From Methylomicrobium sp. wino1 (GTDB lineage: Bacteria > Pseudomonadota > Gammaproteobacteria > Methylococcales > Methylomonadaceae): a DNA stretch of 64,000 bases. The DNA lies in the NCBI RefSeq assembly GCF_003932755.1, contig NZ_CP024202.1:2790001-2854000 (forward strand). The letters run 5' to 3'. Below are positions 5,960 through 64,000 of this stretch, piece after piece. Each line of letters starts with the position of its first letter. Position 1 is the first letter of the stretch. Position numbers and translations under genes: made by a program. The notes beneath the pieces were generated by a model. It was not told the DNA's origin. It did no database searches and saw nothing but the letters and a program-made list of their open reading frames with translations.

Positions 5960-6190
5960 GGATTTCGTGAAAAATAACTTCCTTGTGCTATGAGTTTTGA
6001 GCGGGTTCGGTAACTCGCTTGACAGGACGCCGTTAATACGTCCGTGTAGGCTTGACGGCGGTGACTGATTGCCAAGGATGGCATGAATGCAGATTTTGCA
6101 GGAGCAAAAATCTGCCCTGCCGCCGACACCTGCCAATCGAGCAACCGAACCTGCTTACCTTGCGTTAAAAATAGGGAAGTTATTTATGAC
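5960..6190. repeat. Palindromic repeat, family A variant (A2), with inner palindrome
   Basis: About 230 bp with outer inverted arms (AAATAACTTCC...GGAAGTTATTT). The inner inverted region starts GGTTCGGTAACTCG and ends CGAGCAACCGAACC. Inside is the family core GGACGCCGT-TAATACGTCCGTGTAGGC. A further small palindrome (CAGATTTTGC...GCAAAAATCTG, about 6082-6113) recurs at 14323-14355. This repeat explains most of the gene-free stretch 5908-6269. A shortened copy in opposite orientation is at 43050-43148. Confidence 0.75.
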
Positions 6191-18397: not shown

Positions 18398-18626
18398 TTA
18401 CTGTGAAAGTTCGTAGATTTAGACTCTTTATCTAATTTATCGATAGACAACACAATGTCGGTTCCGAAGAGGGTGCGGTTGCTCGATCGACAGGCGTCGG
18501 CGGCAGGGAGCCGCCGTCGAGCCTACATGGACGTATTCACGGCGTCCTGTCGGGCGAGTGACCGCACCCTCCCCACGTCTCAAACTTTCATTTGCCAAGG
18601 CGATAATGGCTTCTTCATGATTGTTA
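18398..18626 (-). repeat. Family A repeat (~230 bp, reverse orientation)
   Basis: Reverse complement of the repeats at 36803-37043 and 60415-60654. Conservation extends beyond the inner palindrome (GGGTGCGGTTGCTCGA...CACTCGCCCGACAGG on the other strand) into both flanks, ending in CTGTGAAAGTTCGTAGATTT. The core carries GTCGAGCCTACATGGACG (18516-18533), which matches the insertion target of the IS110 element at 62.6 kb. Confidence 0.75.
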
Positions 18627-24515: not shown

Positions 24516-24748
24516 TATACCCATCGCAGATCAAAATTCGGCACCGGGGTGACCGTCAAAGGACGCCGTGAACCCAGCACCTAAATTATCCAAGATAGTT
24601 AACCATAGCCAATGGACTATGGAATTTAGGTGCTGGGTGAATACATCCCTGTAGGCTCTATGCCAGCCCCTCACCTAGCGTTAGGTGAAGGGCCGATCAC
24701 CCCGGTGCCTCCTTAGGCAATGCCGAAATTTCAAGTGCGAAAGGTATA
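24516..24748 (+). repeat. Family B repeat, full copy (B1), containing the 65-bp mini-element
   Basis: Ends TATACCCATCG and GTGCGAAAGGTATA. The core AAAGGACGCCG(TGAA) is split by a 65-bp palindromic module (24573-24637, CCCAGCACCTAAATT...AATTTAGGTGCTGGG), and TGAA is repeated after it, followed by TACATCCCTGTAGGCTC. Then come TATGCCAGC and a CCTCACCTAGCG / CGTTAGGTGA palindrome. It fills the space between the receiver protein and fae. Confidence 0.8.
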
Positions 24749-36802: not shown

Positions 36803-37043
36803 TAACGTTCATGAAAGCCTGGCCATCGCCCCGGCAAATGAAAGTTCTCTGGTGGCGGAGGGTGCGGTCACTCGCCCGACAGGACGCCGTGAATACGTCC
36901 GTGTAGGCTCGACGGCGGCTATCCCTGCCGCCGACGCCTGCCGGTCGAGCAACCGCACCCTCTTGGAGCCGGCATTTTCTCTGCTGAGCTTCGTATATTG
37001 AAAAATTAGCTAAGGTGTCCGAATCTACGAATTTTCACAGTAA
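36803..37043 (+). repeat. Family A repeat (241 bp)
   Basis: Runs from TAACGTTCATGAA to TTTTCACAGTAA. The inner inverted part (36858-36962) is GAGGGTGCGGTCACTCGCC...CGAGCAACCGCACCCTC around GACAGGACGCCGTGAATACG and GCTCGACGGCGGC / GCCGCCGACGCC. It is nearly identical to 60415-60654. It ends 12 bases before the truD start, so it may supply part of the truD leader. Confidence 0.8.
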
Positions 37044-41508: not shown

Positions 41509-41735
41509 TACCCATCGTAGATGAAAATTCGGCCTTGGGGTACCCGTCAAAGGACGCCGTAAACCCAGCACCTAAATTCCATAGGTCTTTGGCAATGATT
41601 TAAAATCATGGCTTATTTAGGTGCTGGGTAAATACGTCCATGTAGGCTCTATGCCAGCTCCATGCTGGCAAAGCCTTTACCGAGCACCCCAATGCCTCCT
41701 CCGACAATGCCGAAATTTGAAGTGCGAAAGGTATA
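41509..41735 (+). repeat. Family B repeat, full copy (B2), containing the 65-bp mini-element
   Basis: Same ends and core as the 24516 copy. The 65-bp module (41564-41628) is flanked by TAAA on both sides and is reversed relative to its host compared with B1. It also contains GTCCATGTAGGCTCTATGCC (41636-41655), the complement of the IS110 target sequence, here unoccupied. It occupies the space between yqaA and rpiA. Confidence 0.8.
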
Positions 41736-60414: not shown

Positions 60415-60654
60415 TAACGTTCATGAAGGCCTAGCCATCGCCCCGGCAAATGAAAGTTCTCTGGTGGCGGAGGGTGCGGTCACTCGCCCGACAGGACGCC
60501 GTGAATACGTCCATGTAGGCTCGACGGCGGCTCCCTGCCGCCGACGCCTGTCGATCGAGCAACCGCACCCTCTCTGGAACCGGTATTGCCAGCACAGAGT
60601 TTTGTATATCGAAAAATTAGATAAAGTGTCCAAATCTACGAACTTTCACAGTAA
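60415..60654 (+). repeat. Family A repeat (240 bp)
   Basis: Almost identical to 36803-37043, from TAACGTTCATGAA to TTTCACAGTAA. Contains GTCCATGTAGGCTCGACGG (about 60510-60528), the complement of the IS110 target with full identity over CTACATGGAC. It fills much of the 610-base gap after metZ; the rest (60655-60913) contains a possible -10 box TATAAT (60867-60872) for the next gene and nothing else. Confidence 0.8.
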
Positions 60655-62490: not shown

Positions 62491-62572
62491 TATACCTTTC
62501 GCACTTCAAATTTCGGCAGTGCCGGGATGCTCGGTTCGCTTGCCGGCTAGTTGAGGGGCTGGCATAGAGCCT
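62491..62572 (-). repeat. Family B repeat, left part of the copy disrupted by IS110 (B3)
   Basis: Reverse orientation: begins TATACCTTTCGCACTTC and runs to GGCATAGAGCCT, where it breaks. The remainder continues at 63899 after the insertion element. Joining the two halves restores GGCATAGAGCCTACATGGACG as found intact in other copies. Confidence 0.85.
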
Positions 62573-62599
62573 TGTATGATTAATTTAAATGAATTTTAG

Positions 62600-62790
62600 C
62601 CAGGAAATACTTTAAGCTGTACCGAGTTCATTGGGAGGCCGCTTGAGCCTGAGGACTGGATTAAACCAGAGCCTGTCATGTAGATTGGCCCCCGCCCTAT
62701 TCACCTATACCGCGGAGTATCTGAGGCTTAGAGCCTGCATTCACAAGGATGGTAGGTGCATACGCAGGGTCGGGAACCAATGACTAGTTT
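62600..62790 (+). ncRNA. Bridge RNA of the IS110 element
   Basis: Two complete loops are visible. Target loop 62633-62693: closing stem GGCC/GGCC (62637-62640, 62687-62690), left guide GAGCCT (62645-62650), inner hairpin CTGG/CCAG (62656-62669), right guide CATGTAG (62677-62683). The guides match the real flanks GAGCCT (62567-62572) and CTACATG (63897-63903). Donor loop 62702-62758: stem CACCTA/TAGGTG (62702-62707, 62753-62758), left guide GAGTATCT (62715-62722) identical to the element's right end (63891-63898), hairpin AGGCT/AGCCT (62724-62736), right guide ACAAG (62743-62747) complementary to the left end CTTGT (62571-62575). The outer ends of the transcript cannot be fixed from sequence. 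Confidence 0.85.
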
Positions 62791-62820
62791 ACTTTCCTTA
62801 TCACAGAATAACAATTAAAC

Positions 62821-63855
62821 ATGGCAGATCAACAAATTAACAGCGCTTCACTTGACACACAAACCCGTATCTTCGCTGGCGTCGATGTAGGATCTAAAGA
62901 ACTGGTTTTGGTGGTGCGCAAAAATGGCAAACCTTTCAATCCGCAGAAGTTCTCCAATACCCCAGCTGATCATGCCCGGATGGCCAAGAAACTGAACAAA
63001 TTGTCCGGCATTATCGTGTGTATGGAAGCCACCGGCAGTTATCATTTCGATTTAGCCGTTGCGCTCCATGATGCCGGCGTCAAGGTAATGGTCATCAATC
63101 CCAAGGTCTCTCATAACTTTGCTAAAGTGTTGATGAACAATAGTAAAACAGATGATGTGGACACGAATACTCTGGCGGTGTATGCCGAACGGATGGATTT
63201 TGTGCCTTGGTCCCGTCCTTCGAATGAAAAGATCGCTTTACGTTGTTTCTCACGCCGTATTAATGCGCTAACCGATCAAAAAACAGCAGCAAAGAATCAG
63301 TTGCATGCCTTAAGCGCAACAGTTGAAACACCCAAAGCCGTGCTAAAAGATGCACAAGCAGCCATCGATCAATTAGATAAGCGTATCGATCAGTTAACGG
63401 CTGGCGCCTTGGCATTGATCGAAAAACATCCGGAACTCAGTCGAGCATTAGTTTTGTTCACGACCATTAAGGGTATTGCCAATACCAGTGCGATTGCCCT
63501 CATGGGAGAACTACTGATTTTGCCTGCGGATATGTCGCACCGTGAGTGGGTCAAGTTTGCGGGGCTCGATCCAAGAGCTTTTGATTCCGGCACGAGTGTC
63601 CACAAAAAAACGCGTATATCCAAGGCCGGTAACAGCCAGATTCGCGCCGCCCTGTATATGCCTGTCTGGAGCGCTGTGCAGCATGATCGCCATATTAAGG
63701 CGTATTACCAACATCTCCTTGATATGGGTAAATTACCGTTGCAAGCCTGTTGTGCGGTCATGCGTAAATTGTTACATGCGATTCACGGCATGCTCAAGCA
63801 TGATAAACCATTCGATAACACGCGTTTTTATGCAATTCCGTCAATCGCTGAATAG
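62821..63855 (+). CDS. IS110-family transposase (bridge-RNA-guided recombinase)
   Basis: 344 residues. The N-terminal RuvC-like DEDD domain has Asp22 in FAGVDVGSKE, Glu69 in CMEATGSY, and Asp111 and Asp114 in SKTDDVDTNTLA. A coiled-coil segment (about 150-195) follows, then the C-terminal transposase_20 domain with TTIKGIANTSAIALM and the serine region FDSGTSVHKKTRISKAGN (Ser256 or Ser259 the likely nucleophile). IS110 enzymes (for example IS621) recombine a circular donor and a target with the help of a bridge RNA. The gene is complete with no frameshift, so the enzyme should be functional. ATG 62821 is 248 bases from the left boundary. Confidence 0.93.
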   Translation: MADQQINSASLDTQTRIFAGVDVGSKELVLVVRKNGKPFNPQKFSNTPADHARMAKKLNKLSGIIVCMEATGSYHFDLAVALHDAGVKVMVINPKVSHNFAKVLMNNSKTDDVDTNTLAVYAERMDFVPWSRPSNEKIALRCFSRRINALTDQKTAAKNQLHALSATVETPKAVLKDAQAAIDQLDKRIDQLTAGALALIEKHPELSRALVLFTTIKGIANTSAIALMGELLILPADMSHREWVKFAGLDPRAFDSGTSVHKKTRISKAGNSQIRAALYMPVWSAVQHDRHIKAYYQHLLDMGKLPLQACCAVMRKLLHAIHGMLKHDKPFDNTRFYAIPSIAE

Positions 63856-63898
63856 CAGAAAAATGCCTATTTTTAACTTGATTTTAAACAGAGTATCT

Positions 63899-64000
63899 AC
63901 ATGGACGTATTCACCCAGCACCTAAATTATTCAAGATAGTTAACCATAGCCAATGGACTATGGAATTTAGGTGCTGGGTTCACGGCGTCCTGCCAAGCGA
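63899..64000 (-). repeat. Family B repeat, right part of B3, with the 65-bp mini-element (runs off window)
   Basis: Continues the 62491-62572 repeat with ACATGGACGTA, then TTCA, the 65-bp module 63914-63978 (CCCAGCACC...GGTGCTGGG), TTCA again, and CGGCGTCCTGCC. The window ends before the end of the repeat. Confidence 0.8.

What the first reader, a model, noticed from the sequence alone, without database searches (positions are those of the whole stretch)
62600..62790. Complete bridge RNA readable from sequence, with both target and donor guides matching
The 5' non-coding end of the IS110 element folds by eye into two internal-loop hairpins. The target-binding loop carries GAGCCT (62645-62650) and CATGTAG (62677-62683), which match the left flank GAGCCT and, as complement, the right flank CTACATG of the actual insertion site. 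The donor-binding loop carries GAGTATCT (62715-62722), identical to the last 8 bases of the element, and ACAAG (62743-62747), complementary to its left junction CTTGT. Each loop has a closing stem and an internal hairpin, and everything centres on a CT core, as described for IS621. Four independent matches at the expected places make coincidence unlikely.
Basis: partly seen in the sequence, partly recalled or inferred. Interest (0 to 1): 0.93.

Follow-up and report, generated by a model that had tools for sequence, protein, structure and literature searches.

The report
Jumping gene cut by own guide
This stretch encodes a guide RNA that tells a bacterial jumping gene where to insert, and related genomes, including those of E. 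coli, carry scars suggesting that such elements sometimes mistake their own guide gene for a target and delete most of themselves.

Summary
All four guide segments lie at the stated coordinates in the left end of an IS110 element (recombinase 62821-63855; three near-identical copies in the genome). In 22 relatives, one per genome, the left target guide tracks each element's own insertion site (5.36 of 7 positions against 3.51 shuffled, p about 1e-5), and stems show compensatory changes. It is a bridge RNA: a new member of a known kind.

The new part lies beside it. In six genomes of the genus I count 13 left-end remnants; in seven an internal CT is joined exactly to the target's right half. 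Two of the six endpoints are guide genes (LTG 62650, LDG 62722). E. coli IS621 shows the same scar, a 72-bp stub ending at the LTG core, at three loci; at one, full-length and stub versions differ by an exact 1,207-bp deletion. I infer that the recombinase sometimes takes its own guide gene for a half-site. This bears on the published open question whether excision is bridge-RNA-guided. Eight searches of an open-access library listed no description of it.

The parts
62571..63898 (+). IS110 element, from left core CT (62571-62572) to right core CT (63897-63898)
   Evidence: three near-identical copies with common ends in the own genome, 13 near-full copies in the genus
62564..62572 (+). left target half, ATAGAGCCT
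   Evidence: flank of the element; empty site GAGCCT|ACATGG seen at an orthologous locus of a stub in G002
63897..63903 (+). core and right target half, CTACATG
   Evidence: pairs with the right target guide
62600..62775 (+). bridge RNA gene (ends approximate, transcript not tested)
   Evidence: consensus of 24 relatives, 28 pairs, 8 with changes on both sides
62633..62693 (+). target-binding loop: closing stem 62633-62640 with 62687-62693, inner hairpin base 62652-62654 with 62672-62674
62642..62650 (+). left target guide (LTG), CTTGAGCCT; also a look-alike of the left target, endpoint of stub L073
   Evidence: guide-target covariation in 22 elements; stub L073
62677..62683 (+). right target guide (RTG), CATGTAG
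   Evidence: complement of CTACATG; extension beyond GTAG weakly supported across relatives
62702..62758 (+). donor-binding loop: closing stem 62702-62711 with 62751-62758, inner hairpin 62724-62727 with 62733-62736
62694..62770 (+). outer stem around the donor-binding loop, 62694-62700 with 62762-62770
   Evidence: one of its seven pairs is not formed in this element (62699-62763, A-C)
62715..62722 (+). left donor guide (LDG), GAGTATCT; identical to the right end of the element, endpoint of stub L015
62743..62747 (+). right donor guide (RDG), ACAAG
   Evidence: complement of the left junction CTTGT
62575..62580 (+). -10 box TATGAT of the promoter that would form in the circular element
   Evidence: joined ends read TTGATT-17-TATGAT; no such site in the linear element
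63878..63883 (+). -35 box TTGATT of the circle promoter
62821..63855 (+). IS110 recombinase gene, 344 aa
   Evidence: PF01548 and PF02371; ISCro4 3e-42, IS621 1.2e-38
62669..62674 (+). internal GAGCCT, endpoint of stubs L016 and L071
62867..62872 (+). internal GTATCT in the recombinase gene, endpoint of shortened element L014
62656..62657 (+). internal CT, endpoint of stub L060 (poor guide match)
62705..62706 (+). internal CT, endpoint of stub L272 (reads TT there; poor guide match)

Best explanation
The region is the bridge RNA gene of an IS110 element whose recombinase joins target and donor DNA at a CT core (mechanism known for IS621, inferred here). The two left guides have the same sense as the half-sites they recognise, so every bridge RNA gene carries a copy of a left-target half and a left-donor half. 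The recombinase occasionally uses these copies, or other internal look-alikes. If the internal site imitates the left target, an attempted excision joins it to the right target and leaves a left-end stub. If it imitates the right end of the element, a shortened element results, either by insertion of a small circle or by deletion. Shown: the junctions, and in E. coli an exact deletion at a site that also exists full-length. Inferred: that recombinase and bridge RNA did it, and the order of steps.
For: Bridge RNA. Stubs in the genus: 7 of 13 left-end remnants end at an internal CT (TT in L272) joined exactly to ACATGG or, in L071, ACAGGG. Four of their six distinct endpoints are among the only five CTs, of 58 in the element, with six or more guide or site matches next to the core (chance 1.7e-4, or 0.02 if only the 18 CTs of the left end are counted). 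Empty target at the orthologous L073 locus. E. coli IS621: 72-bp stubs ending at the LTG core at three loci, each with a full-length IS621-type element at the same site in another strain; at msrQ-zinT P15-385 and STEC2017-197 agree at 40 of 40 left-flank, 72 of 72 left-end and 38 of 38 right-flank bases. The cut points share only CT there. Of 72 CTs in IS621 only the LTG one has a run above 4 matching the LTG.
Against: Six of the 13 remnants in the genus do not end at CT joined to the target, and two of the six precise endpoints (62657, 62706) match the guides poorly. In genus g17 only 1 of 8 remnants that start at the left junction ends at the LTG, and its right flank lacks AC (L184). Two of the three E. 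coli loci were found with a query that contained the junction, so they say nothing on endpoint preference; the zinT stub is in one genome only. At flgK the compared left flanks differ at 6 of 40 bases, at znuB the right flanks at 6 of 38. For ISEc11 (IS1111 type) a rejoined target was not detected after circle formation (PMC11187229), which speaks against simple reciprocal excision in that group.
Confidence: 0.75

Rival explanations
1. An ordinary bridge RNA element with random decay: the stubs are deletions by replication slippage or by recombination between short repeats, unrelated to the guides.
For: Six of 13 remnants in the genus end elsewhere; L018 has a five-base overlap ATTTA at its junction. 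L014 and L015 end in GTATCT and GAGTATCT, six- and eight-base repeats of the right end.
Against: Seven junctions fall exactly at CT and the right target half. For the GAGCCT endpoints and for the IS621 stubs the two cut points share only CT.
Confidence: 0.12
2. The stubs are small mobile elements in their own right: small circles formed with a false right end and then inserted into empty targets, rather than deletions of resident copies.
For: L016 and L071 share the endpoint 62674 although their flanks point to different loci; the L015 endpoint would give a circle with the donor junction GAGTATCT|TGT of the full element.
Against: In E. coli a full-length element occupies the same site in other strains at all three loci, which fits deletion in place. 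Circles of 72-150 bp would be very small (inference).
Confidence: 0.25
3. The stubs come from failed insertion: only part of the circle was copied or retained when it joined the target.
For: In the genus the precise remnants found all keep the left junction; I saw no precise right-end-only counterpart (L064 is right-end only and not joined to a target on its left).
Against: Gives no reason for endpoints at the LTG and LDG cores or for full-length copies at the same three E. coli sites.
Confidence: 0.08

Closest known systems
IS621 and its bridge RNA, E. coli (PMC11208160, PMC11208158; passages read)
   Same: Recombinase homology (E 1.2e-38); bridge RNA upstream of the gene with two guide loops; CT core; promoter formed across the circle junction; repeated palindromic targets.
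   Different: Left target guide differs and the target is another repeat; the LDG here keeps the CT core (GAGTATCT) where IS621 reads ACAGTATCA. Stubs at the guide gene turn up in both but were not mentioned in the passages I read.
ISCro4 recombinase (PDB 9t56)
   Same: Closest solved sequence (E 3e-42).
   Different: Only the sequence match was examined; its bridge RNA and targets were not compared.
ISEc21 seekRNA, IS110 type (PMC11187229; passages read)
   Same: Upstream non-coding region needed for circle formation; promoter formed in the circle.
   Different: No sequence comparison made here; target differs.
Engineered bridge RNA excision (PMC11208160; passages read)
   Same: Deletion between a target-like and a donor-like site on one molecule in the same orientation.
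   Different: That was engineered; here the element's own guide gene seems to supply the site, in nature.

Membership tests
IS110 family | DEDD (PF01548) and Transposase_20 (PF02371) domains | tested here: met
   both above curated cut-offs
IS110 family | acidic DEDD residues and C-terminal serine in place | tested here: met
   identical D, E, D, D and an FDSG serine aligned with IS621 and ISCro4; which residues are catalytic is recalled, numbering not checked
IS110 family | long non-coding region upstream of the gene | tested here: met
   about 248 bases from left core to the gene against about 43 on the right
IS110 family | specific target, no target duplication beyond the core | tested here: met
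   13 of 13 near-full copies at GAGCCT|ACATGGA; empty site GAGCCT|ACATGG at a stub locus
IS110 family | circular intermediate | not testable with these tools
   only the promoter that would form was read
Bridge RNA | target loop whose guides match the insertion site and vary with it | tested here: met
   left guide p about 1e-5 in 22 elements, right extension p 0.035
Bridge RNA | donor loop whose guides match the element's own ends | tested here: met
   GAGTATCT and ACAAG
Bridge RNA | conserved two-loop secondary structure | tested here: met
   28 pairs, 8 with changes on both sides, 39 such cells against 13.1 shuffled; number of further pair types not above shuffles (14 against 15.1)
Bridge RNA | transcribed and bound by the recombinase | not testable with these tools
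   no expression data
IS1111 group | long non-coding region downstream of the gene | tested here: not met
   the long non-coding region is upstream

The most novel reading that the evidence does not exclude
Self-recognition of the guide gene is a built-in hazard of bridge RNA systems. Because the left guides copy the top strand of their sites, an element can attack its own bridge RNA gene, and the stubs are a fossil record of bridge-RNA-guided excision that went to the wrong half-site. Selection may have removed the CT core from the donor guide of many elements (CC in 10 of 28 read here, CA in IS621) to close one of the two routes.
Probability: 0.6. Interest if true: 0.75.

Novelty: new variant of a known kind. 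Interest (0 to 1): 0.62.

Why it matters
The structural paper on IS621 states that it remains unclear whether excision is carried out by the IS621-bridge RNA complex (PMC11208158, legend of Extended Data Fig. 1). Natural stubs joined exactly between the target guide gene and the right target are what bridge-RNA-guided excision would leave when it picks the wrong left half, so they make the question testable in a simple assay. They also warn designers of bridge RNA tools: a donor that carries its own guide gene in cis contains a half-site for its own recombinase. The bridge RNA itself is ordinary for its family.

Tried and rejected
Rfam search of the element: no bridge RNA family at E up to 1, only a weak 7SK hit. 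Single-sequence folding: weak (z -1.23). Precise stubs in genus g17: of 8 remnants with a fetched locus that start at the left junction, 1 ends at the LTG core (L184) and none has the CT|AC junction. A search meant for the left end of the G145 element covered its right end, because the locus was not turned; not used. Of 20 further places read across genus and family, only L272 added a CT-type junction with the target. Empty-site comparison gave no matched pair of flanks in another genome for L014, L071 or L060; for L015 the intergenic context differs although G002 has a similar empty repeat nearby. Rejected by inference: that the stubs are copies of the RNA, because they start at the first base of the left end, upstream of where transcription from the circle promoter would begin.

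Rows dropped: the family table had 67 elements, 50 with both left target and guide; the test used 22, one per genome. The structure alignment used 24 elements chosen for readable loops. Three left-end matches in G004 that stop at contig ends (L058, L063, L067) were left out of the 13 remnants. L068 and L273 have near-identical flanks and are probably one locus in two genomes.

Full report
What is there. The window lies in a 5.06-Mb genome (G000). A 99% copy of the element is in Methylotuvimicrobium buryatense 5G, and I take the genus to be Methylotuvimicrobium. The element runs from a CT at 62571 to a CT at 63898 and encodes a 344-aa recombinase with PF01548 and PF02371. By sequence its closest solved relatives are ISCro4 (E 3e-42) and IS621 (E 1.2e-38). 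Three near-identical copies are in the genome and 13 near-full copies in the six genomes of the genus held here; all 13 sit at GAGCCT|element|ACATGGA.

The guides. The left target guide is best read as nine positions, 62642-62650, matching the left flank at 7 of 9. GAGCCT occurs four times nearby, so the match by eye would be weak alone. Two family tests make the case. First, in 22 elements, one per genome (of 50 readable, of 67 tabulated), the guide matches the element's own left flank at 5.36 of 7 non-core positions, against 3.51 when flanks are shuffled among elements (p about 1e-5). Three of the 22 match at only 2-3 of 7. The extension of the right guide is weakly supported (25 of 60 against 18.2, p 0.035). 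Second, an alignment of 24 bridge RNA regions gives both loops, their closing stems and inner hairpins: 28 pairs, 8 with changes on both sides, 39 such cells against 13.1 in shuffles (0 of 500 as high), covariation score 0.214 against 0.121, and 98.5% of cells paired against at most 53% when slid; the number of further pair types is not above shuffles (14 against 15.1). Related sequences can exceed such shuffles, so I rest on both tests together. A lone fold is unremarkable (z -1.23) and Rfam gave no matching family. Joined as in a circle, the ends read TTGATT-17-TATGAT; no such promoter was found in the linear element.

The target. RAGCCTACATGGA occurs 98 times in the own genome and 33 to 266 times in the five other genomes of the genus, with no hit for the pattern read backwards. 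It belongs to a dispersed palindromic intergenic repeat. At the L016 locus that repeat is absent from G004, so the repeat itself seems to be mobile. The parallel with IS621 and REP sequences is plain.

The truncated copies. Searching the genomes with the element found short left-end copies. In the six genomes I count 13 left-end remnants that do not stop at a contig end: L014, L015, L016, L017, L018, L059, L060, L068, L070, L071, L073, L272, L273. Seven have the left junction and a right end where an internal CT meets the target's right half, ACATGG; L272 has TT for CT, which I read as decay, and L071 has ACAGGG. In window coordinates the endpoints are 62872 (L014), 62722 (L015), 62674 (L016, L071), 62650 (L073), 62657 (L060) and 62706 (L272). 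Of these, 62650 is the core of the LTG and 62722 that of the LDG. Of 58 CTs in the element, five have six or more bases next to the core that match a guide or its site; four of the six endpoints are among those five. The chance is 1.7e-4 over all CTs and 0.02 if only the 18 CTs of the left end are allowed. The other two endpoints match poorly, and the other six remnants end elsewhere. At the L073 locus, G002 shows the empty target GAGCCT|ACATGG.

Generality in E. coli. A search with the IS621 left end found matches in 2,226 of 5,426 genomes, in 1,660 of them covering 80% or more. Of 60 records listed at even steps, 44 had a complete match, one a 90% match, 14 a match to the first 27% and one a short internal match. 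A 27% case, downstream of znuB (L294), is a 72-bp stub that stops at the core of its LTG and continues with the right half of the REP target. A query holding the junction LTG|AC then led to two more loci: between a rod-binding protein gene and flgK (39 genomes) and msrQ-zinT (one genome). Because that query held the junction, only the znuB stub is an unbiased endpoint; in the type strain DSM 30083 a whole-genome search gave one intact left end and this stub. At all three sites a full-length IS621-type element is found in other strains: C311 at flgK, RM10042 and P15-385 at zinT, and PT62 at znuB, where the LTG is a natural variant; the stub's guide matches that target at 9 of 9. An empty znuB site is in B1W1. 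Between P15-385 (full) and STEC2017-197 (stub) the left flank (40 of 40), the left end (72 of 72) and the right flank (38 of 38) are identical, so they differ by an exact 1,207-bp deletion from the LTG core to the right-end core. At the other loci the match is less clean: 6 of 40 left-flank differences at flgK, and 1 left-flank, 1 left-end and 6 of 38 right-flank differences at znuB. IS621 has 72 CTs; only the LTG one has a run above 4 matching the LTG.

How it most likely works. In the published scheme, excision recombines left target|left end with right end|right target (PMC11208158, legend). The left target guide has the top-strand sequence of the left target, so its gene is a copy of that half-site. 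If the complex takes the gene for the real left flank, the product is LTG|right target, with the left end kept as a stub. The LDG gene copies the right end of the element in the same way; used as a false end, it gives a shortened element whose circle would have the donor junction of the full element, or a deletion. Of 28 elements with a readable LDG, the window's own included, the core reads CC in 10 and CT in 18; in IS621 it reads CA. Loss of CT would block the second route. The junctions and the E. coli deletion are shown; the agent and the steps are inferred.

What is known. I read passages of PMC11208160, PMC11208158, PMC11187229 and PMC1525189. They describe bridge RNA insertion, engineered excision, rare deletions between insertion sites in the laboratory, the need for the non-coding region in circle formation, and REP targets. 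Two statements bear on excision: it is unclear whether the IS621 complex mediates it, and for ISEc11 no rejoined target was detected. Eight library searches listed nothing that describes stubs at the guide genes. The library lacks most subscription papers and bioRxiv, and I read no whole text or supplement, so this is not proof of novelty.

Verdict. The bridge RNA is real and ordinary for its family. The self-inflicted stubs are the part worth following.

Noticed in passing
window 18519-18531, 41637-41649, 60510-60522 (exact); 6041-6053, 24646-24658, 36898-36910 (one mismatch): Six further copies of the 13-base target motif in the window, against 0.06 expected by shuffling; they belong to the dispersed palindromic repeat that the element uses as its target.
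   Followed up: partly
window about 63912-63980: A second palindrome (CCCAGCACCTAAATT...AATTTAGGTGCTGGG) sits inside the target repeat just right of the element, and matches tens of other places in the genome.
   Followed up: no
L262 against L016: The target repeat itself is missing at the orthologous locus in G004, with a short TATAC-like sequence at its edges, as if it were a small mobile element.
   Followed up: partly
L088 / L166 (G226), upstream of the element: About five copies of the first 15 bases of a left end (TGTATGATTAAAACT) lie in tandem before the element, each unit ending in CT.
   Followed up: no
L004 and L005 (G000:C1:1250877 and 4968925): Two further IS110-type genes in the genome, only weakly like this one; the second has an in-frame TGA.
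   Followed up: no
L184 (G117:C92): A left-end remnant of about 82 bases in another genus ends exactly at its LTG core (CCACCCT) but continues with TGCG, not AC.
   Followed up: no
L305 (E. coli PT62); five genomes at 99% or more: An IS621 variant with a changed left target guide (TATCCGACCT); in PT62 it sits at a site with that sequence, a natural retargeting.
   Followed up: partly
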